Assembly: GCA_903904835.1 (NCBI GenBank)
Contig: CAIVEI010000206.1
Coordinates: forward strand, 1 to 64,000
DNA: 64,000 nucleotides
Direction: 5' to 3'
Source: an uncultured Schlesneria sp.
Lineage (GTDB): Bacteria; Planctomycetota; Planctomycetia; Planctomycetales; Planctomycetaceae
Shown piece by piece: positions 25,924 through 55,204 of this stretch. Below the pieces are notes generated by a model, which did no database searches, had not been told where the DNA came from, and saw only the letters and a program-made list of their open reading frames with translations. Every line of letters starts with the position of its first letter. The first letter of the stretch is position 1. Made by a program: the position numbers and the translations under genes.

Positions 25924-26124
25924 GATTGGTGCGACGTGGGTTTGGGTCGCTGCGGTCGAATCTGACAGATATGCTTCCACGAACTCTGCGTGAATGCTTG
26001 AAGATTGTTTCGAAAACAGGAAATATGCTGATTGAAGACGATGATTGGGCCTGTAAGCATAGTATTCATCCGAGTTAATATATCGCCTAGTGTTTGGTAA
26101 GTGATTAAACGTTTCAGGTTGATC

Positions 26125-27981
26125 ATGACATCTTCAATTGAGCAAGTAACAGACGAACTGCTGCGCCATGGATTACTGAACGACGAGTCGATGGCCGAGT
26201 CGTGCCATGAACTGGAAAAACGAGGCGATTCGCTCACAAAAGAAAATTTGTTGTCGTTGCTGACTGCTACGGGGAAGCTCACACCGTTTCAAGCGGAAGA
26301 AGTCCGACAAGGGCGAGCAAATCATTTATTGATCGGAAACTATCTTGTTCTCAGCCGTCTCGGCGAAGGGGGCATGGGAACTGTCTATAAGGCGCTCCAT
26401 CGGCGGATGCAGCGTCTGGTGGCAATCAAGGTCATTCGCAAAGATGTCGCGACGCGAGATTTCATCACTCGTTTCCGTCGTGAGATCCAGTTGCTGGCTC
26501 GATTGAATCATCCGAATATGGTGATTGCCTACGATTCGGACCAGTGCCTCATGGGCGAATTCCTGGTGATGGAATATGTCGAAGGGATCGACCTGGCGGA
26601 AGTCTTGAAGCGGAGTGGTACCTTGAGCATGGCGGAGGCCATTTCCGCCGTTCGTCAGGCGGCTCTGGCATTGGAATACGCACATCGACAAGGGATTGTG
26701 CATCGTGATATCAAGCCGGCAAATCTGTTGCGAGACGTTTCAGGGTGTGTCAAAGTCGTTGATCTGGGACTGGCACGACTGGCGGAATGGGAGGGGGCCA
26801 AGGGGTTAGAGTTGACGCAGATGGGAACCGTAACCGGGACGGTTGACTATATGTCGCCCGAACAGGCCGAAACGCCACTTTCGGTTGACCTGCGCAGTGA
26901 CATCTACAGTCTTGGCTGTACGATGTTTTATCTGCTGACGGGTGGGCCGGTCTTCACGAAGTCGAGCCTTGTTGCCCGCATTATGGCACATCGGAATGAT
27001 CCCCCTCCAAAACTCAATTTCGTGCGAAGCGACCTCCCGCCGGGGCTGGATGCCATTTTCCAAAAAATGGTGGCCAAGAGACCGGACGATCGATATTCCT
27101 CGATGCAGGAAGTCGTTGAGGCATTAGACAGGCTAGATCGTTCCTTGAAAGATCATCAGCCAACACAGTTCATCAATCCGCAAGATGTCATTCAAAAGTG
27201 GATGCCTGAGCGTGCGAGAGTCATGCTTGTTGAACAGTCCCGATTGCAGTCAGGCGTTATTGGAAAAATCCTGGCCGAAATCGGTGTGGCAAACGTCCAC
27301 TTCGTTGCCACAGGCAAGGAGGCACTCGAACAATTTAGCACCTGCTCGCCAACTGTCGTGCTGAGCAGTATGAAACTGTCAGACATGAGCGGCCTGGAAC
27401 TGGCCGCCCGGATTCGCGATTCGATACGGTGTCCGGATACGGGAATCATTCTGATGACCGGTGATGACTGGAGCTCCGATCGCCAGACCGCCGCAAAACG
27501 TTTGGGACGAACGCAGATGATCCGAAAGCCTTTTGACGGCGAAGGACTGCGAAAAATCATCGAAAAAACGCTCAATGATCAGGAACGCGATCAACAACCG
27601 ATGGATGGATTAAGCGATCTTCGGGTGCTGATCGTGGACGATAGCTCCGTCGCGCGCCGTCACGCTCAAGAGACTTTGACTCGACTCGGGTTTTCAAGAT
27701 TTACACTGGCCGACGATGGCAGCACCGCCATCGAAGAATTAGAAAAAGCTTCGTTTGACCTGGTCGTCACCGACTACAACATGCCGCAAATGGATGGCCA
27801 GCAATTAATTACGTACATCCGTCAGGTCAGCAATCAGCGGCAAGTTCCCATTATTATGGTGACGACCGAATTCGATCCACAAAAGCTCGCGGCCGTTTAT
27901 CAGCTTGGTGTTTCGGCCATCTGCAATAAGAGCTTCGATCTGGAGCTCGTTCGCAATATCGTCATGAAACTGTTTGCGTGA
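26125..27981 (+). CDS. Ser/Thr protein kinase fused to a pseudo-receiver and a receiver domain
   Basis: About 618 residues. Start ATG at 26125 (GTG at 26101 is possible). Residues ~1-70: short helical region. ~72-345: Hanks kinase with LGEGGMGTVYKA, VAIKVI, HRDIKPANLL, VVDLGLARL and SDIYSLGC. ~365-490: receiver-like domain whose acidic pair reads EQ and whose phosphorylation site reads VVLSSMKL, so it lacks the Asp. ~497-615: intact receiver with VLIVDDSSVARRH and VVTDYNMPQMDG. Unlike most such kinases there is no transmembrane segment. It lies 300 bp upstream of cheA on the same strand. Because no free cheY is present, the intact receiver is the obvious phospho-acceptor of CheA; that link is inference. 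Confidence 0.9.
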   Translation: MTSSIEQVTDELLRHGLLNDESMAESCHELEKRGDSLTKENLLSLLTATGKLTPFQAEEVRQGRANHLLIGNYLVLSRLGEGGMGTVYKALHRRMQRLVAIKVIRKDVATRDFITRFRREIQLLARLNHPNMVIAYDSDQCLMGEFLVMEYVEGIDLAEVLKRSGTLSMAEAISAVRQAALALEYAHRQGIVHRDIKPANLLRDVSGCVKVVDLGLARLAEWEGAKGLELTQMGTVTGTVDYMSPEQAETPLSVDLRSDIYSLGCTMFYLLTGGPVFTKSSLVARIMAHRNDPPPKLNFVRSDLPPGLDAIFQKMVAKRPDDRYSSMQEVVEALDRLDRSLKDHQPTQFINPQDVIQKWMPERARVMLVEQSRLQSGVIGKILAEIGVANVHFVATGKEALEQFSTCSPTVVLSSMKLSDMSGLELAARIRDSIRCPDTGIILMTGDDWSSDRQTAAKRLGRTQMIRKPFDGEGLRKIIEKTLNDQERDQQPMDGLSDLRVLIVDDSSVARRHAQETLTRLGFSRFTLADDGSTAIEELEKASFDLVVTDYNMPQMDGQQLITYIRQVSNQRQVPIIMVTTEFDPQKLAAVYQLGVSAICNKSFDLELVRNIVMKLFA

Positions 27982-32746: not shown

Positions 32747-33244
32747 ATGGCTTTATTAGAAAAGATTTTCACGTTTCATCTCGATGGCCTGTTTCTAGGG
32801 ATCGACGTGAATGAAGTTCACGAGGTCCTGCCGACTCAGGCATTGACTCCGGTTCCGCTGGCGCAACCCATCGTAGCGGGTTTGATTAACATGCGCGGTC
32901 AAATCGTCGTGGCGATCGACCTTCGCCGGTTTCTGCGGCGACCTGTCCGTTCGGTCGATCAGCGACTGCCAATCAACGTCATTGTTCGCAATGGCGGCAA
33001 TCTCATGAGCCTTCTCGTCGATGATATGGGGGATGTCATTGAAGTAGACTCGGCATTGTTCACGAAGCCACCCGACACAACCGCCACCGACACCCGAAGT
33101 CTTTTTCGGGGAGCCTTTCAACTCCCCTCACAGTTGCTGTTAGTCTTCGATACCGTTCGTGCGACCGAAGCCATAGTGTCGCAGGCGACATCCAAAGTGT
33201 TACAATCAGTACATGAATCGAATCCGCATTCTGATCGTCGATGA
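32747..33244 (+). CDS. cheW: Chemotaxis coupling protein CheW
   Basis: 165 residues, single CheW domain: FHLDGLFLGIDVNEVHEVLP, LINMRGQIVVAIDLRRFL and LLVDDMGDVIEVD. It couples the receptor to CheA. ATG at 32747. Its 3' end overlaps the cheB start by 32 bp, indicating coupled translation. Confidence 0.93.
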   Translation: MALLEKIFTFHLDGLFLGIDVNEVHEVLPTQALTPVPLAQPIVAGLINMRGQIVVAIDLRRFLRRPVRSVDQRLPINVIVRNGGNLMSLLVDDMGDVIEVDSALFTKPPDTTATDTRSLFRGAFQLPSQLLLVFDTVRATEAIVSQATSKVLQSVHESNPHSDRR

Positions 33245-34334
33245 GTCCTCCGTCAGTCGGGACGCGCTCCGAAGAATTCTGAGTGCTGTTGCTGATTTGG
33301 AGATTGTGGCTGTCACAGGTAGTGGCAAAGTTGCACTGGCCCGATTGGCCGAACTGAATCCCGATGTCGTCTTGCTTGACGTGATTGGGCCGGAAAAAGA
33401 AGGCTTAAAAACACTTGCCGCCTTGCGTCAAAAGGCCCCTTCGTTGCCGGTTATCATGTTCAGTCATTTGACTGATCGAGGTTCTCAGACAACGGTTGAT
33501 GCGCTTCTGCTTGGAGCAACCAACTACTTGATGAAACCTGACACGAATACGGAACTTGAGAGCTGCATCCAAAACGAATTGACGAAGAAGATCAAGAATC
33601 TAGGTACGCCTTCTTCAGATCAGTCCAGTCTTCGTCTACGTGACGGTTTGGCGGGGATTCGACTGAATCGAAATGCGGGTACTCCGGCAGTTGTCGAAAA
33701 GCCCGCGCGGGAGAGTAAGATCGTCCCGGCTCGTTCATCTCGCTCAGTGGAACTGGTCGCGATCGCCACATCCACGGGGGGGCCGAATGCACTGGCAAGT
33801 GTACTTTCTTCCCTGCCGAGTTCGTTTGTGACGCCGATCGTGATTGTCCAACATATGGGAGCAGGGTTTACTACCGGTCTTGCCGAAAGCCTGGGTCGCC
33901 AGTCGGGTCGGACTGTTCGTGTCGTCGATCATGCCCATTCGCTGACGGACTCCACAGTCTGGATCGCTGCGGGAGGACGGCATGTCACCGTGACAAAGCG
34001 CGGCAACGTCATGCAGGTTGCACCAAATGACGAACCGGAAGTGAATGGTTGCCGCCCGTCGGCCGATGTGTTGTTTCAGTCCGTGGCAACGGCGGTCGGT
34101 GCCCATTGCCTTGCTGTTGTTCTGACCGGAATGGGATTTGATGGCCTCGCGGGATGTCGCATGATCAAGCAGGCTGGCGGATCGATTCTGGTTCAGGACG
34201 AAGCCAGTAGTATCGTCTGGGGCATGCCGGGTCAGGTGGCGACCGCCGGACTGGCGGACATGGTGCTGCCACTTTCTGATATTTCCCGGTACATCAGCCT
34301 GTACGTCAATTCGAGGCCAACGAATGCTGGATAA
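33213..34334 (+). CDS. cheB: Chemotaxis response regulator methylesterase CheB
   Basis: 373 residues. N-terminal receiver (1-120): RILIVDESSVSRDALRR, VVLLDVIGPEKEG. The phosphorylation Asp is present but the usual MPxMDG is replaced by GPEKEG. Linker, then methylesterase with the Ser-His-Asp triad in IATSTGGPNAL, VQHMGAGFTTGL and LTGMGFDG. It removes methyl or deamidates receptor glutamines for adaptation. Overlaps cheW (32 bp) and cheR (11 bp), so all three are one operon. Confidence 0.95.
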   Translation: MNRIRILIVDESSVSRDALRRILSAVADLEIVAVTGSGKVALARLAELNPDVVLLDVIGPEKEGLKTLAALRQKAPSLPVIMFSHLTDRGSQTTVDALLLGATNYLMKPDTNTELESCIQNELTKKIKNLGTPSSDQSSLRLRDGLAGIRLNRNAGTPAVVEKPARESKIVPARSSRSVELVAIATSTGGPNALASVLSSLPSSFVTPIVIVQHMGAGFTTGLAESLGRQSGRTVRVVDHAHSLTDSTVWIAAGGRHVTVTKRGNVMQVAPNDEPEVNGCRPSADVLFQSVATAVGAHCLAVVLTGMGFDGLAGCRMIKQAGGSILVQDEASSIVWGMPGQVATAGLADMVLPLSDISRYISLYVNSRPTNAG

Positions 34335-50066: not shown

Positions 50067-50356
50067 TGGATATCCATATACAACCTGAGGCCGAAGTCAC
50101 CTGCAATCTTACTCGGCATGGATGAAAACGAGCAACAACGGTTTCATCGGTGTTCGTCTCAAATGCTCGTGTAAGCGAGATGCGGTACGTCCACCCACCC
50201 AAAAAACTGAACATGCCGAAGTATCGGGAATTCCTGTTTTTTGCTTGACGGTTCATCGTGGCACAAATAGGATTTCAGACGTAACATCTAATGTCGCGCG
50301 TTTTCTGAAGATTGAATACACAGCGTTTCCGGCAGAATCTCAGAAAGGACTTCGTC

Positions 50357-51418
50357 ATGTCTCAGGCAGCAACGTTATCGGTCGGCCATCCTTATTTGCC
50401 GGTCAAACAGACTCAATGGTCGCCCGTCGCAACCGGCACAGAATTCGAAGACAATTCACCATTTGGTCTTCAAGGCTTGGCGCGGGACTCCCTTCAGATT
50501 ATTAAACCCGAATGCGTGAAACAGCTGGCCGTGAGATTGGCATTGCGTGCGACACGAGCACAGATTCAAGATGATAACTACGTCAATCAGGTCCTGAATT
50601 TGCACCCGGACTGGGTCGATGAATATCAGGTCGTCCATTTGATTGAGCGATCTTTATGGATTCGGGAACATAGCGATCTCGTGATGACAATGGTGCGAAA
50701 CCCAAGTCAGATTCCCGACAATCCTCCCCAGAAAATCATGGACGCGTTGACTCGGGCTTACTCGCTGCACCCTGAATCCACCGTGTGGTATGGAGTGCCG
50801 CTATTTGGTGATCAAACGAATCATGAAGGGTTGCCAATACCGGTGACGGCGGACGAAGTACGAGCGGAAGCGAAGAAACGCGTCGCTGCGGCGCAAGAGC
50901 ATGCACTTCGCTGGGGGTGGTTCTATCGAACCGCGATGACGACCATAGGAATTCCTTCCATGTGTTGGTACTCGCTCCAAGCGATTAAGAACCGGATTCA
51001 GCAAGTTTCCACGAGCGTCGGGGAGTATTGGAAGAAGTGTCGGCAGGATGCGCGTCGCCGAGCTCGAGCCATTTACATGGCAGAACATGAACGCTGCCGA
51101 TTTGGTTTTTCGAAGACAGAGATTCCAGCACATCGCACGTGGTTAGGGCAAAGCCTGGAAACGGCGTGCGTAATACTTGAACTGATGGCCTATCAATCGT
51201 CGGTTGCGGCGTCTGCGTCACCATTCTTCGGACTCGTCGCTGCCCCACTCGCGATGATCAAGTTTGTGCCGTTGATCTTCGTTCCGTTAACCGTCGTTTC
51301 CTGCGACCCATTCCTCTTTGTCGAGCTTCCCAAAGAACCTGGAAAATTACGGCATCTTGGGCACTGGTATTGGCAAAACCAACCGAAAGGCCAACAAAAA
51401 TTGCATTTGCACTTATAG
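50357..51418 (+). CDS. Protein of unknown function
   Basis: About 353 residues, not recognised. ATG at 50357, with AAAGGA about eight bases upstream; the in-frame ATG at 50312 lacks one. It has a helical, charged core, a hydrophobic stretch near the C-terminus (FFGLVAAPLAMIKFVPLIFVP) and a His-rich end. It is convergent with the methyltransferase gene 60 bp away and is not clearly part of that operon. Codon use looks normal. Confidence 0.7.
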   Translation: MSQAATLSVGHPYLPVKQTQWSPVATGTEFEDNSPFGLQGLARDSLQIIKPECVKQLAVRLALRATRAQIQDDNYVNQVLNLHPDWVDEYQVVHLIERSLWIREHSDLVMTMVRNPSQIPDNPPQKIMDALTRAYSLHPESTVWYGVPLFGDQTNHEGLPIPVTADEVRAEAKKRVAAAQEHALRWGWFYRTAMTTIGIPSMCWYSLQAIKNRIQQVSTSVGEYWKKCRQDARRRARAIYMAEHERCRFGFSKTEIPAHRTWLGQSLETACVILELMAYQSSVAASASPFFGLVAAPLAMIKFVPLIFVPLTVVSCDPFLFVELPKEPGKLRHLGHWYWQNQPKGQQKLHLHL

Positions 51419-51477
51419 AATTTCCATGACTCACGGCTCAGGCGTTAGCCAATCGCCACAGATTCGTCGGTCAACGA

Positions 51478-52995
51478 TTAGCGTTTCACCGAGCGAGTCA
51501 TTGGATTCGGGGTGGCCCGCTGTTTCTTTGCGCAAACAATCATTGCCTGACCTCCATAGGCATTTTCGGAGTGATAATTGATCGAGCCGAAACCTGCCTC
51601 TAACAGCATTTTCTTCATGTCTTCAACCGTCCAGCGGAACAGGATCGGCCGCAGAATCGTCTGATTGATTTGTCGGACCTGCTCGAATTCGAGGTTCAAT
51701 TCAGACATCCGGTCGGCGGCAACCAGATCGGCCGCAATCCGCGCGAACAGCTTTTCCAGATTTGTCGATTTCTGTGGGCCGCTGACTCGAATTTCGCCTC
51801 CAATTTTGAGGGAGTCCCACACTTCTTTGAAACATTTGATTGGGTCTTCTAACGAATACGCCACGTTATTCAAGATGGCGAAGTCAAACGCATTTCCCGG
51901 TAAGCCAAACAACGTGTTGACGTCCTGCTTAATCGCGAGAATTCCAGGTCCAAGCGCGTCGCTCCGCAAGTAGTCATGGCATTTGTCACGCAACAGATCC
52001 AGCATCATCCGGTTATTCTCGACAGCGAAGATCGTGTGACCACGCTGTTGTTTCGCGAGATGTAATGACAAATTACCGGTTCCCGCGCCGAGGTCCAGGA
52101 TTCGGGATCGTGGTGGCAGGCGGGTCAGTTCCCCTTGTCCACCGCGTGGAACCTGCTCTCCGAGAATATGCTCAATCAGTTCGTGGTAGACGCGTGAAGC
52201 CAGCAGGACGCGGTCGTAAGACATGGCATATTCAGACCAGGTCATGTCCAGCCGTAACGCCTCGAACACATCTCGCTTATAACGGTACGTGGTTGGCAAA
52301 TCGTCGAACTTCACTTCGAGAATCACCAGCCAGCCCTGGGTTTCTTCGGCGTCTTTGGGGATCTGATAGGCTCGCTTAATCGCATGAATCTTTCCGTATC
52401 GCGGACTTGTGTACTCGATCGGTTCGATATGGATCGGTGGTAGTTTGGTATTGTTAAACTCTTTGGCACCCTGATCCAGGATCGCCTTATAGTTATCCAG
52501 GAAATAGACCCATTCACTGACATGCTGCCCACGCCGACCTTCCATTGTGCGGTCAAAAGCCAGACCAAACGCCAGGTTCCAGTCAACAATCCTGAAGTAA
52601 TTGTCGAGCATGTAGGCGGGAACGAGGGCATCGGCCCACGGGGTGACGCCAAACGTCAAAAAATCGCTGACCAGATTGAAATCAGGAGCGTTGATGCCTG
52701 GGAGATCAAGGCCTTCAGCGTACGACTCGCGTTCATCTCGATCTTCGGGGACTTCTTTTGCAACAAATCCGCCCGAAGAAAGTGTTGGCAGATCTGCTGG
52801 CTGTTGGCTCGCTTTTCGCAATCGCTCGACTTCCTCACGCAAGAGTCGAAGTTCCTCCTCAATCGAACTATTCATGGAAGTCGGACTGGTTTTGTTTTTG
52901 GTTGAATCACTGTGCGAAGCCGCATTTTGCGTGGCTTTCGTACGGACCTTGCCGGTGACTGCGGCGGTTGTTCGAGACGGACTTTTCTTTGCCAT
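51478..52995 (-). CDS. PAS-like sensor fused to SAM methyltransferase
   Basis: About 505 residues. A low-complexity basic start, a short coiled coil (IEEELRLLREEVERLRK), then a PAS-like domain at about 120-240 (MLDNYFRIVDWNLAFGLAFD; GRRGQHVSEW). The C-terminal half is a class I methyltransferase with SAM motif ILDLGAGTGNLSLHLA near 310 and FDFAILNNVAYSLEDP. ATG at 52993-52995 chosen; a TTG lies at 53025. The TIR-GNAT gene ends 40 bp upstream on the same strand, so the two form an operon. The substrate is unknown; a small molecule or the partner's product is plausible. Confidence 0.85.
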   Translation of the reverse strand: MAKKSPSRTTAAVTGKVRTKATQNAASHSDSTKNKTSPTSMNSSIEEELRLLREEVERLRKASQQPADLPTLSSGGFVAKEVPEDRDERESYAEGLDLPGINAPDFNLVSDFLTFGVTPWADALVPAYMLDNYFRIVDWNLAFGLAFDRTMEGRRGQHVSEWVYFLDNYKAILDQGAKEFNNTKLPPIHIEPIEYTSPRYGKIHAIKRAYQIPKDAEETQGWLVILEVKFDDLPTTYRYKRDVFEALRLDMTWSEYAMSYDRVLLASRVYHELIEHILGEQVPRGGQGELTRLPPRSRILDLGAGTGNLSLHLAKQQRGHTIFAVENNRMMLDLLRDKCHDYLRSDALGPGILAIKQDVNTLFGLPGNAFDFAILNNVAYSLEDPIKCFKEVWDSLKIGGEIRVSGPQKSTNLEKLFARIAADLVAADRMSELNLEFEQVRQINQTILRPILFRWTVEDMKKMLLEAGFGSINYHSENAYGGQAMIVCAKKQRATPNPMTRSVKR

Positions 52996-53035
52996 ATTGT
53001 TTTTGCTCGGAAAGACATGTGCCAAAGCGACCTGG

Positions 53036-54916
53036 TTAATCTGTCAGATTATCCATCGGCAGAAGTTCACGCTCCATCGCTAAACACGGAACTTTGTAAG
53101 TGAGAAAGTGATCACCGGTAACACCGGGGATCACCTGGAATCCACAGCGATGGTAGAACCCACGATGCTTCTCATGGCAGGCCAGAAACAGCACCTGGAA
53201 CGAATGTGCTTTGGCAAACGAACATAAGGTATCGACAATCACTTCACCAAGTCCCAGTTGCTGCCAGTCGGGAGCAACAATCACTCGACTCACCTCGGCC
53301 TTGGCAACGCGACGCTTGACCAGCTTCTGGTAATAATTCTGGAATTCGCTGAATTCTTGCAGGACATCGAATGGAAGTTGCCGTTGATTTGATGGATAAC
53401 GCAGATTCATTTCCAGCAATTTCGAAGATTTTTCTTTGACAAGCTCTTCGATCAGTTTTGCAATCTGAGGGTATTCTTCGCCGAATCCACGGACGAGTCG
53501 AGCCGCACCCAATAAAGATCCGTCTGCCTTTGAGAATAATCCGAACGGAAGCGACATCTTGTCCGTGAAATCGAGTTCCCACGGAACGTCGGGCGAGACC
53601 TTCTGGGACGACAAGTAACCCAGCTCTTCCCAGACTTTGTAACGCAGTTCAAAATACGCAGCAAATTCCTCTTTTGTCCGGATCACTCGTGCGGTTGCGA
53701 CGTGTCGCGTTCTGACTTTTAGAACAACTTTTCTCAATGTTTCGAAAAGCATTTCTTCGGAAGTAACCTGCCTGCCTGCTTGCATGATTGACGCAGTAGG
53801 CCGATGTGCAGCGAATTGTTCCCACTCAGGAGAATTGATGACGACTTCAAACTGACATTTGACATCTGCCGGAAGAATTAATTCGTCGACTTGCGGACTG
53901 TGGGGCTCGAAGCCGTCGAGCAGAAGAATTGATCCCGTTTCCCGTTGTCGCAACTGAGCGACGGCTTCTTCGAGCGATGAGCATTCTTTGAGTGTCGCAG
54001 CGGGGCCAGGGAAGAGTCGATCCTTAGGGTCAAAACACCATTTTCGCAGACGCTGACGCTTCTCCCGGCTATAGCGATCGGGATGTAGAGTGCAAAATAT
54101 GATTTCCGGAATAAGCAGTTTCTCGGCCATTGATGTCTGCCCGCTGAACAATTCAGGCGAACCATCATCGACCTGGGATGGCGACCGACCTGCAATGGGG
54201 CTTTTGTTAACCTGAATGTCCGCTGGCTGGCGAACTTCTGAAACAAGACGCGAGTTGAGTGGCTCGACCGTCTCGTTAACAGTCGGGTCGCATTCAATTC
54301 GCTCATTAGAGATTAGTCTTGAGCTTTCGTCCTGGGTGCTAAAACCTCGTTCTTTCGTGGAAATTGTTTGAACCGTATTCCGAGGACTTATGTCGGCATC
54401 TGCGATTTGGTTAGCAGCTTGGTTCTGGCGTTCAGCGATTTCTCGTTCAATTTCGCCAAATAATGGAAAAAGGCTGTCGCCGATGTTTTCATAGGCCTCG
54501 GCTGGATGCTCCCACATCTCGACGGGACGCCCGTTTTTTGGGAGGACATTCAACTTCACGAGCTTGGAATATTTCCAATTCACGGCCTGACAAATCACGG
54601 GAACGACACGAGCCGTCTTTTCCTCATGTCGCCTGAGTGCTTCAGGCAATTCCCGCTTCATACAGTAGTCAGAGTTGAAGAAGTTCGGGGTGACGAGTAA
54701 CAAAATGATGTGTGCTGCGGCGAAACGCTCGTAGATTTCGTCTTCCCAGTCGTCACCTGGTCTAATATTGCCGTCGTGCCAGATTCGCACTCCATGCTCA
54801 TTCTCAAAAACCTTCAGGCTACGCCGTAAGTCCTCAAGGAACGGCAGGTCTTTCCGAGAATAAGAAATGAAGATCTCGATCGGTTGTTGCGATACTCCCG
54901 TTATGGCCGTGGACAT
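53036..54916 (-). CDS. TIR domain - linker - GNAT acyltransferase fusion
   Basis: About 626 residues. TIR domain 12-140: IEIFISYSRKD, WHDGNIRPGDDWEDEI, ILLLVTPNFFNSDYC, then E89 in the position of the catalytic Glu of NAD-cleaving bacterial TIRs. A disordered linker at about 170-290. An uncharacterised alpha/beta region at about 290-425 (ILLLDGFEPHSPQVDELIL). C-terminal FeeM/LuxI-like GNAT at 425-626: ATARVIRTKEEFAAYFELRY, LLGAARLVRGFGEEYP, VIVAPDWQQLGLGEVIVDTL. The ATG at 54914-54916 is chosen because GGAAGG lies ten bases upstream; 54925 is too near that site. First gene of a pair with the PAS-methyltransferase. The known families are separate; I do not recognise this fusion. Confidence 0.85.
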   Translation of the reverse strand: MSTAITGVSQQPIEIFISYSRKDLPFLEDLRRSLKVFENEHGVRIWHDGNIRPGDDWEDEIYERFAAAHIILLLVTPNFFNSDYCMKRELPEALRRHEEKTARVVPVICQAVNWKYSKLVKLNVLPKNGRPVEMWEHPAEAYENIGDSLFPLFGEIEREIAERQNQAANQIADADISPRNTVQTISTKERGFSTQDESSRLISNERIECDPTVNETVEPLNSRLVSEVRQPADIQVNKSPIAGRSPSQVDDGSPELFSGQTSMAEKLLIPEIIFCTLHPDRYSREKRQRLRKWCFDPKDRLFPGPAATLKECSSLEEAVAQLRQRETGSILLLDGFEPHSPQVDELILPADVKCQFEVVINSPEWEQFAAHRPTASIMQAGRQVTSEEMLFETLRKVVLKVRTRHVATARVIRTKEEFAAYFELRYKVWEELGYLSSQKVSPDVPWELDFTDKMSLPFGLFSKADGSLLGAARLVRGFGEEYPQIAKLIEELVKEKSSKLLEMNLRYPSNQRQLPFDVLQEFSEFQNYYQKLVKRRVAKAEVSRVIVAPDWQQLGLGEVIVDTLCSFAKAHSFQVLFLACHEKHRGFYHRCGFQVIPGVTGDHFLTYKVPCLAMERELLPMDNLTD

Positions 54917-55101
54917 CGTGTTCATACCTTCCGGAAAGCGCTGTATCAAACTAATCCATTTACCATACGGCCAATGAAGGGCCTCCGCAAGCGAGTTTCC
55001 ATCGGCTGTGGATGTTTCCACTGCATTGAATCCTGGTTCGTTGCATTTTTGTCCTAGAGTACCGATCTACCGTAGGAATCAGACCCGCGTGCGTTGATAA
55101 G

Positions 55102-55136
55102 AAAAAACAGGGAGCACCACGAAAGTGCCCCCTGTT
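55102..55136 (-). terminator. Rho-independent terminator of the PQQ propeller gene
   Basis: Stem CAGGGAGCAC/GTGCCCCCTG with one mismatch at 55108-55134, followed on the minus strand by TTTTTT (55102-55107). It lies between the stop at 55205 and the TIR gene start, separating the two transcripts. Confidence 0.78.
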
Positions 55137-55204
55137 GAAACTGCATTAAGAAAACCGCTAGTTACCCGATTTCGCCTTAGCAAAACGCGAGTTACCGTGT
55201 CGTA

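What the first reader, a model, noticed from the sequence alone, without database searches (positions are those of the whole stretch)
51478..54916. Two-gene TIR-GNAT / PAS-methyltransferase operon, candidate new signalling or conflict system
The first gene joins a TIR domain (SYSRKD, WHDGN, catalytic-type E89) through a disordered linker and an uncharacterised alpha/beta region to a FeeM/LuxI-like GNAT acyltransferase. The second gene, 40 bp later, has a coiled coil, a PAS-like sensor and a SAM methyltransferase. Known bacterial TIRs cleave NAD or make nucleotide signals, and LuxI/FeeM enzymes make acyl signals. Having both in one protein, with a likely product-modifying methyltransferase, would be a complete signal-making unit. 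I know of no description of this pair.
Basis: partly seen in the sequence, partly recalled or inferred. Interest (0 to 1): 0.88.

Follow-up and report, generated by a model that had tools for sequence, protein, structure and literature searches.

The report
Acyltransferase-methyltransferase pair with swappable effectors
Two neighbouring bacterial genes, an acyl-transfer enzyme and a sensor-methyltransferase, form a rare travelling pair that in different bacteria carries different domains of the kind used in anti-virus or cell-suicide systems, so it may be an undescribed bacterial immune module built around an acyl-type chemical signal.

Summary
The two ORFs are as described: TIR-linker-alpha/beta-GNAT (53036-54916, minus) and, 40 bp on, coiled coil-PAS-like-methyltransferase (51478-52995, minus). 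The pair is not unique. I found 14 PAS-MT loci, mostly in Planctomycetota, four in gammaproteobacterial MAGs; 12 have the same alpha/beta-GNAT gene directly upstream, and the other two are limited by contig ends. In the same 297 class genomes the GNAT family occurs in 6, all among the 7 with PAS-MT. The GNAT is closest to FeeM (N-acyl amino acid synthase) in one fold search, tied with other GNATs in a second. The TIR is not part of the conserved core: it is one of several interchangeable domains (TIR, TIR-CHAT, caspase, CAP12/Pycsar TIR, or a membrane helix), on either gene. Congeners keep both flanks without the pair. Best reading: an effector-armed, horizontally moving conflict (immune or cell-death) module whose core makes or modifies an acylated small molecule, with TIR/caspase as output rather than signal maker. 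Nothing biochemical is shown. The alpha/beta region stays unassigned (no similarity to receiver domains). Nine full-text searches found no description.

The parts
53036..54916 (-). Gene 1: TIR - disordered linker - unassigned alpha/beta region - FeeM/LuxI-type GNAT (626 aa)
54572..54874 (-). TIR domain (residues 15-115), E89 at about 54650-54652
   Evidence: TIR_2 1.5e-17; ThsB-type PADLOC model 2e-31; E89 aligns with the Glu of the relatives' TIRs, and that column of the family profile with the Glu of 3h16 and of the NAD hydrolase AbTIR; position
54131..54439 (-). low-complexity linker, residues about 160-262
   Evidence: sequence; no domain match
53702..54130 (-). unassigned alpha/beta region, residues 263-405, also present before the GNAT in the 10 relatives with a complete N-terminus
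   Evidence: alignment A5; pLDDT under 50 for most of it; no similarity to receiver domains by profile comparison
53096..53704 (-). GNAT acyltransferase domain, residues about 405-607
   Evidence: Pfam; model matches FeeM 2g0b
51478..52995 (-). Gene 2: coiled coil - PAS-like - class I SAM methyltransferase (505 aa)
52300..52644 (-). PAS-like domain, residues about 118-232
   Evidence: model topology; PAS_4 in 5 of 14, PAS in 3 of 14, MLTR_LBD in 9 of 14 family members at E<=1, none in the window's own segment
51520..52119 (-). methyltransferase domain, residues about 293-492
   Evidence: Methyltransf_11 1.7e-11; model matches CysG and CouO, Z 21
55106..55136 (-). terminator-like hairpin after the upstream PQQ-type gene; would separate the pair's transcription from it
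   Evidence: 13 pairs, but the region's total of 9 such sites is about the chance level (mean 8.1)
51433..55204 (.). segment absent from congener G183 (51420-55204 from G176), which keep both flanks

Best explanation
A horizontally moving, effector-armed conflict module (phage defence or programmed cell death). The conserved core is an alpha/beta-GNAT of the N-acyl amino acid synthase/LuxI group plus a PAS-methyltransferase. Inferred mechanism: on a trigger, the GNAT acylates an amine from acyl-ACP or acyl-CoA; the PAS part of the methyltransferase protein binds that product and the methyltransferase matures or silences it; the attached output domain (TIR NADase here; caspase, CHAT or CAP12-type TIR elsewhere) is then switched on by assembly and damages the cell. 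Shown: the pair, its recurrence, the interchangeable domains, its absence from congeners that keep the flanks, the enzyme families. Inferred: all chemistry, the complex, the trigger and the defence role.
For: 12 of 14 PAS-MT loci have the GNAT gene directly upstream on the same strand; gaps -14 to +66 bp in 11, and L068 overlaps by 104 bp at the first possible start. Co-occurrence in the same 297 genomes: MT in 7, GNAT in 6, all six with MT (Fisher 7.7e-12, with the circularity noted under evidence against). 9 of 14 loci fuse TIR, caspase, CHAT or CAP12-TIR to one gene of the pair; the other 5 have an N-terminal hydrophobic helix; where the TIR is on the GNAT (window, L040) the MT has neither. 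L041's TIR matches PycTIR (6.3e-39) and a PADLOC TIR 'Effector' model (3.2e-51; that this is a CBASS effector is my knowledge). The caspase dyad is intact in L042, L048 and L068, its His lost in L039 and L049. GNAT: FeeM in 11 of 12, exosort_acyl in 11 of 12 at E<=0.1; best Foldseek hit FeeM 2g0b, E 2.1e-7. Mobile: flanks without the pair in congeners; gammaproteobacterial and planctomycetal members interleave in the tree. L041 lies beside a trypsin-nuclease gene, which I equate with the NucA-trypsin systems named in PMC8195603 (passage).
Against: No assay. The five neighbouring ORFs scanned show no defence or phage family. The TIR sits on the presumed synthase, not on the receptor, in the window and L040, so a simple synthase-to-receptor scheme needs a complex. 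The window's PAS has no HMM match of its own, and the PAS profile matched no PDB sequence. Rows tied within 1 Z of FeeM include ordinary acetyltransferases, and FeeM did not appear among the PDB sequence matches shown, so acetyl transfer to a protein is not excluded. The GNAT profile was built from MT neighbours, so the co-occurrence is partly circular; at most 5 candidates per genome were scored. G102 has PAS-MT without a GNAT match in the held genome.
Confidence: 0.45

Rival explanations
1. Conflict or cell-death module in which GNAT and MT modify proteins (effector, target or each other) and so set the threshold of the TIR/caspase output; no diffusible acyl signal.
For: Same comparative evidence as the main reading. 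Ordinary acetyltransferases match the model as well as FeeM does and lead the PDB sequence matches. L045 and L046 add a kinase-AAA gene, another modifying enzyme (Pfam for L046).
Against: FeeM and exosort_acyl profiles hit 11 of 12 members, though so do general GNAT profiles; the MT's ten best folds are all of CysG, CouO and NovO, natural-product enzymes, though RNA enzymes such as CmoM and Bud23 also appear in the list.
Confidence: 0.25
2. A small natural-product cassette (N-acyl amino acid plus methylation, like stieleriacines) that happens to carry TIR or caspase regulators.
For: In planctomycetes, N-acyl amino acid synthase genes with nearby methyltransferase genes are linked to methylated N-acyl tyrosines (PMC12479983, abstract and passages). 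The fold of the GNAT fits.
Against: No ThiF or nitroreductase gene was noticed in the neighbourhoods read, but none was searched for; domain fusions in 9 of 14 loci are of effector type; the family is sparse and seems to move between phyla.
Confidence: 0.12
3. One reading: the TIR makes a nucleotide signal and the GNAT an acyl signal, together one signal-making unit with the MT finishing the product.
For: The TIR keeps the Glu and resembles ThsB-type TIRs, which generate signalling nucleotides (start of abstract of PMC11204291 in the listing).
Against: TIR is absent from 9 of the 11 GNAT genes with a complete N-terminus, where caspase, CAP12-type TIR or a membrane helix on the other gene takes its place; no SIR2-SLOG receptor among the five neighbours scanned.
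Confidence: 0.08

Closest known systems
CBASS/Pycsar TIR effectors (CAP12, PycTIR) and ThsB-type TIRs of Thoeris
   Same: TIR output domains fused to, or encoded with, a module that would sense; L041 TIR matches PycTIR and a TIR 'Effector' model, window TIR matches a ThsB model
   Different: No cyclase, STING, SAVED or SIR2-SLOG part in the pair; the core is GNAT plus PAS-methyltransferase
EACC1, NucA-trypsin and other conflict systems of Kaur et al. 2020/2021 (PMC7159879, PMC8195603; passages read)
   Same: Constant core with variable effector domains (TIR, caspase, kinase); planctomycetes; L041 lies beside a trypsin-nuclease gene; L042 beside a weak EACC1 match (0.0031, below cut-off)
   Different: The find searches showed no GNAT-methyltransferase core in either main text: 'methyltransferase' occurs 0 times in PMC7159879 and 3 times in PMC8195603, those shown concerning histone methyltransferase complexes; one GCN5-like acetyltransferase effector is mentioned in PMC7159879
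FeeM / NasY N-acyl amino acid synthases, with methyltransferase in stieleriacine loci (PMC12479983)
   Same: GNAT fold and profile; a methyltransferase in the neighbourhood; planctomycetes
   Different: No TIR, caspase, PAS or alpha/beta region is mentioned in the passages read; here the MT is PAS-linked and immediately adjacent
LuxI-type acyl-homoserine lactone synthases
   Same: Fold (TofI Z 15.7, RpaI 15.0, LasI 13.9); conserved acidic and Arg positions in similar order (LuxI residues recalled, not aligned here)
   Different: No LuxR-type regulator among the neighbours scanned; no autoinducer-synthase family in the Pfam or NCBIfam lists; profile match to an AHL synthase is weak (6wns, E 0.14)
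MADS defence (mads_2 methyltransferase, mads_6 kinase)
   Same: MT domain hits PADLOC mad2 (1.3e-16); L046 kinase hits mad6 (1.1e-65)
   Different: The matches cover only the MT and kinase domains, which are generic folds; other MADS genes were not looked for beyond the proteins scanned

Membership tests
Bacterial TIR NADase/signalling TIR | TIR fold with catalytic Glu | tested here: met
   TIR_2 1.5e-17; E89 aligns with the relatives' Glu and that profile column with the Glu of 3h16 and AbTIR; that this Glu is the catalytic one in AbTIR is recalled
Bacterial TIR NADase/signalling TIR | NAD cleavage or cyclisation | not testable with these tools
   needs assay
Thoeris | ThsA-type receptor gene adjacent to ThsB | tested here: not met
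   the five neighbours scanned are a PQQ protein, tRNA nucleotidyltransferase, TrpF, a DUF7133-cytochrome protein and an ORF without Pfam match; the rest of the genome was not searched
N-acyl amino acid synthase (FeeM) | GNAT domain with FeeM profile above cut-off | tested here: inconclusive
   25.9 bits whole protein, 28.2 for the region, cut-off 27; 11 of 12 members match at E<=0.1
N-acyl amino acid synthase (FeeM) | long-chain acyl transfer to an amino acid | not testable with these tools
   needs assay
LuxI AHL synthase | curated autoinducer-synthase family match | tested here: not met
   no autoinducer synthase model in the Pfam or NCBIfam lists
Class I SAM methyltransferase | Rossmann MT fold with the GxGxG motif | tested here: met
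   GAGTG in 14 of 14 members; Z 21 to CysG and CouO
PAS domain | PAS profile and fold | tested here: inconclusive
   weak in relatives, none in the window; topology in model; no fold search of the domain alone
Response-regulator receiver (for the alpha/beta region) | profile similarity to receiver domains | tested here: not met
   hhalign probability 0.2% against 25 receivers of the same genome
EACC1 / NucA-trypsin conflict systems | EACC1 or trypsin-nuclease constant component beside the effector genes | tested here: not met
   not among the five neighbours of the window pair scanned; beside relatives L042 (weak) and L041

The most novel reading that the evidence does not exclude
A new class of bacterial immune signalling: a FeeM/LuxI-like enzyme and a PAS-methyltransferase make, mature and read an acyl-amide alarm molecule that switches on TIR NADases, caspases or CHAT proteases; to my knowledge it would be the first defence system with a lipid-like second messenger instead of a nucleotide.
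Probability: 0.28. Interest if true: 0.93.

Novelty: new variant of a known kind. Interest (0 to 1): 0.76.

Why it matters
Known effector-armed systems, as far as I know, are triggered by nucleotide signals, NTPases or proteases. A core of acyl synthase plus PAS-methyltransferase with the same outputs would add a new chemistry to bacterial immunity and a new link between quorum-type and death-type signalling. The candidate is testable at once: two genes, clear candidate catalytic residues, and members in gammaproteobacterial MAGs that may express in E. coli.

Tried and rejected
Alpha/beta region as a receiver domain: suggested by eye, tested against 25 receivers of the same genome, probability 0.2%; rejected.

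Plasmid, phage or viral carriage: tblastn of P0002 against plasmids and phages found nothing; one viral-contig scan with A3 gave 45 pattern matches, none confirmed.

Rows dropped before the count of 14: L054 (G760, methyltransferase part only, model positions 135-283); L059 and L060 (G099, G115: distant PAS-MT relatives with other neighbours, partial match); duplicates of the same places (L009-L015, L038/L045, L043, L044, L050-L053, L055, L062-L067, L070). L042 and L069 were kept as members without a GNAT seen. Phylum search with the seven-row profile: 2 of 392 genomes, both already known.

PAS part against PDB sequences: no match at E<=10. FeeM is not among the PDB sequence matches shown for the GNAT profiles, and the best ones are other acetyltransferases (60 of 70 and 60 of 129 shown); only the fold search puts FeeM first.

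Promoter scan: 3 sites against 5.0 in shuffles; nothing usable.

Literature: nine searches aimed at the pair gave no description of it. Searches found no paper; searches list only 20 of 934, 15 of 118 and 10 of 433. One search was about the TIR catalytic Glu; passages of PMC9402430 read place it in helix alpha-C. A survey of prokaryotic caspases (PMC3501461) holds 'methyltransferase' 0 times in its main text. The library lacks most subscription papers, so this is weak evidence of novelty. PMC11580390 (methyl esters of N-acyl alanine) holds no 'methyltransferase' in its main text, so it gave no precedent.
Full report
Observation. Both ORFs are real and lie where stated. Gene 1 (53036-54916, minus; 626 aa) holds TIR_2 at residues 15-115 (1.5e-17), a low-complexity linker, an alpha/beta region without match and a GNAT domain. 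Gene 2 (51478-52995, minus; 505 aa) starts 40 bp later and ends in a SAM methyltransferase. A terminator-like hairpin at 55136-55106 lies after the preceding PQQ-type gene, so the pair probably has its own promoter (inference).

Relatives. With the MT protein, 7 of 297 genomes of the class matched at E<=1e-20, the window's own included. With the whole gene-1 protein, 18 of 297 matched at E<=1e-15: the window's own, 16 in the TIR only and G033 in the GNAT only. Reading the neighbourhoods, a genome-contig scan (58 pattern matches, 5 confirmed, one of them G154 again), and profile searches of 196 genomes of G154's order (5 hits, of which 1 new full-length and 1 partial), 45 of G017's order (3 hits, 2 of them distant and partial) and 229 of the class of L048's genome (4 hits, 2 new; Gammaproteobacteria, inferred from the record title 'Chromatiales bacterium') gave 14 distinct PAS-MT loci: window, L037, L038/L045, L039, L040, L041, L042, L046, L047, L048, L049, L058, L068, L069. 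L048, L049, L068 and L069 are gammaproteobacterial by title or search group; L046's phylum is not named; the rest are planctomycetal. A phylum-wide search gave 2 of 392. The family is sparse.

Conserved core. In 12 of 14 the gene directly upstream on the same strand encodes the alpha/beta-GNAT protein; in L047 it is cut by the contig end and shows only the GNAT. The exceptions are L042, where the upstream neighbour is a weak EACC1 match and the contig ends downstream, and L069, where the contig ends 195 bp upstream. Gaps run from -14 to +66 bp in 11; L068 overlaps by 104 bp at its first possible start. A GNAT-family profile over the same 297 genomes as one search hit 6, all carrying PAS-MT; G102 is the one with MT alone (Fisher 7.7e-12). 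Caveats: the profile was made from MT neighbours, related genomes are not independent, and at most 5 candidates per genome were scored.

Interchangeable domains. TIR on the GNAT: window. TIR-CHAT on the GNAT: L040. Caspase-PAS-MT-TIR with the SGHG/DCC dyad intact: L048, L068. TIR-degenerate caspase (His lost)-PAS-MT-TIR: L039, L049. Caspase-PAS-MT: L042. CAP12/Pycsar-type TIR-PAS-MT: L041, L058. N-terminal hydrophobic helix (Kyte-Doolittle 2.4-3.2, a simple measure): L037, L045, L046, L047, L069; L045 and L046 are followed by a kinase-AAA-repeat gene (Pfam run for L046 only), L046 also by TIR-FGE. So 9 of 14 carry an effector-type domain and 5 a helix, and where the TIR is on the GNAT the MT has neither. 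I read this as one output slot per system, filled on either gene, which suggests that the two proteins work as one complex (inference).

Enzymes. GNAT: FeeM profile in 11 of 12, Acetyltransf_5 in 10 of 12, the general GNAT profiles in 12 of 12, exosort_acyl in 11 of 12. The model (mean pLDDT 62.7, good mostly from about residue 140 of 364) matches FeeM first in Foldseek (2.1e-7); in the second look TofI Z 15.7 and FeeM 15.6 tie with ordinary acetyltransferases up to 16.5. Invariant D452, R473, E541, S543 and R544, and R425 in all but the truncated L047 (P0001 numbering), stand in the order of the LuxI catalytic set; that last comparison is from memory. MT: class I fold, nearest CysG 21.5 and CouO 21.4, GAGTG in all 14. 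PAS: topology in the model; HMM support weak and only in relatives (PAS_4 5 of 14, best 2.9e-5; MLTR_LBD 9 of 14, best 0.0073). MLTR_LBD is, from memory, a PAS-type domain reported to hold fatty acids: a hint for an acyl ligand, no more. The alpha/beta region shows no similarity to receivers and is unresolved in the model.

Mobility. In congeners G183 and G176 the flanking stretches are present at 82-89% DNA identity while 3.8 kb holding the pair is replaced by 247 and 457 bp; none of the 10 other genomes of the genus has a match to the MT. In G201 the matches to the two flanking genes lie 19 bp apart. In G252 the same interval holds another two-gene cargo, one of them ferritin-like. I take the pair as inserted; loss in the relatives is not formally excluded. 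In the tree the window groups with L037 and L069 (100/100); L069 comes from the gammaproteobacterial class search and is 48% identical to it; L049 and L039 pair across phyla (97/95).

Reading. TIR, caspase, CHAT and CAP12-type TIR are outputs of known conflict systems (PMC7159879 and PMC8195603, passages; partly recalled). Being swappable, they are unlikely to be the signal source; the constant GNAT and PAS-MT are better candidates. N-acyl amino acid synthase plus methyltransferase has a chemical precedent in planctomycetes, the stieleriacines (PMC12479983, abstract and passages). No biochemistry supports any of them yet.

Novelty. Effector logic known, core new as far as nine searches show: new variant of a known kind; categorically new if the acyl messenger is real.

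Noticed in passing
L110 1413-4236: At the same intergenic site, congener G252 has a different two-gene insertion (a 341-aa ferritin-like protein and a 624-aa protein without Pfam match): the site may be an integration hotspot.
   Followed up: partly
L059 6380-8570; L060 3198-11537: In two further planctomycete genomes a distant PAS-methyltransferase lies beside a second methyltransferase-like ORF (by eye) and, in L060, near an ORF with a sub-threshold Trypsin_2 match and one that looks like trypsin-nuclease (by eye); possibly a sister system without the GNAT.
   Followed up: partly
L037 14047-16606: A pair of an Mrr-type restriction endonuclease gene and a TIR gene with helicase-like matches lies about 4.6 kb downstream of the GNAT/PAS-MT pair in G033.
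   Followed up: partly
L046 6454-7980: TIR fused to an FGE-sulfatase domain, downstream of the kinase gene of the GNAT/PAS-MT locus.
   Followed up: no
window 26101-27981 and 33213-34334: A Ser/Thr kinase with two receiver domains and a CheB methylesterase: perhaps a chemosensory-type cluster elsewhere in the window.
   Followed up: no
window 50312-51418 (+): Conserved 353-368 aa ORF without Pfam match, present at the same place in G176 and G183; a neighbour of the pair, not part of it.
   Followed up: partly
whole genome G000: 14 TIR_2 matches in the window's genome, several in very long open frames (up to 1630 aa).
   Followed up: no
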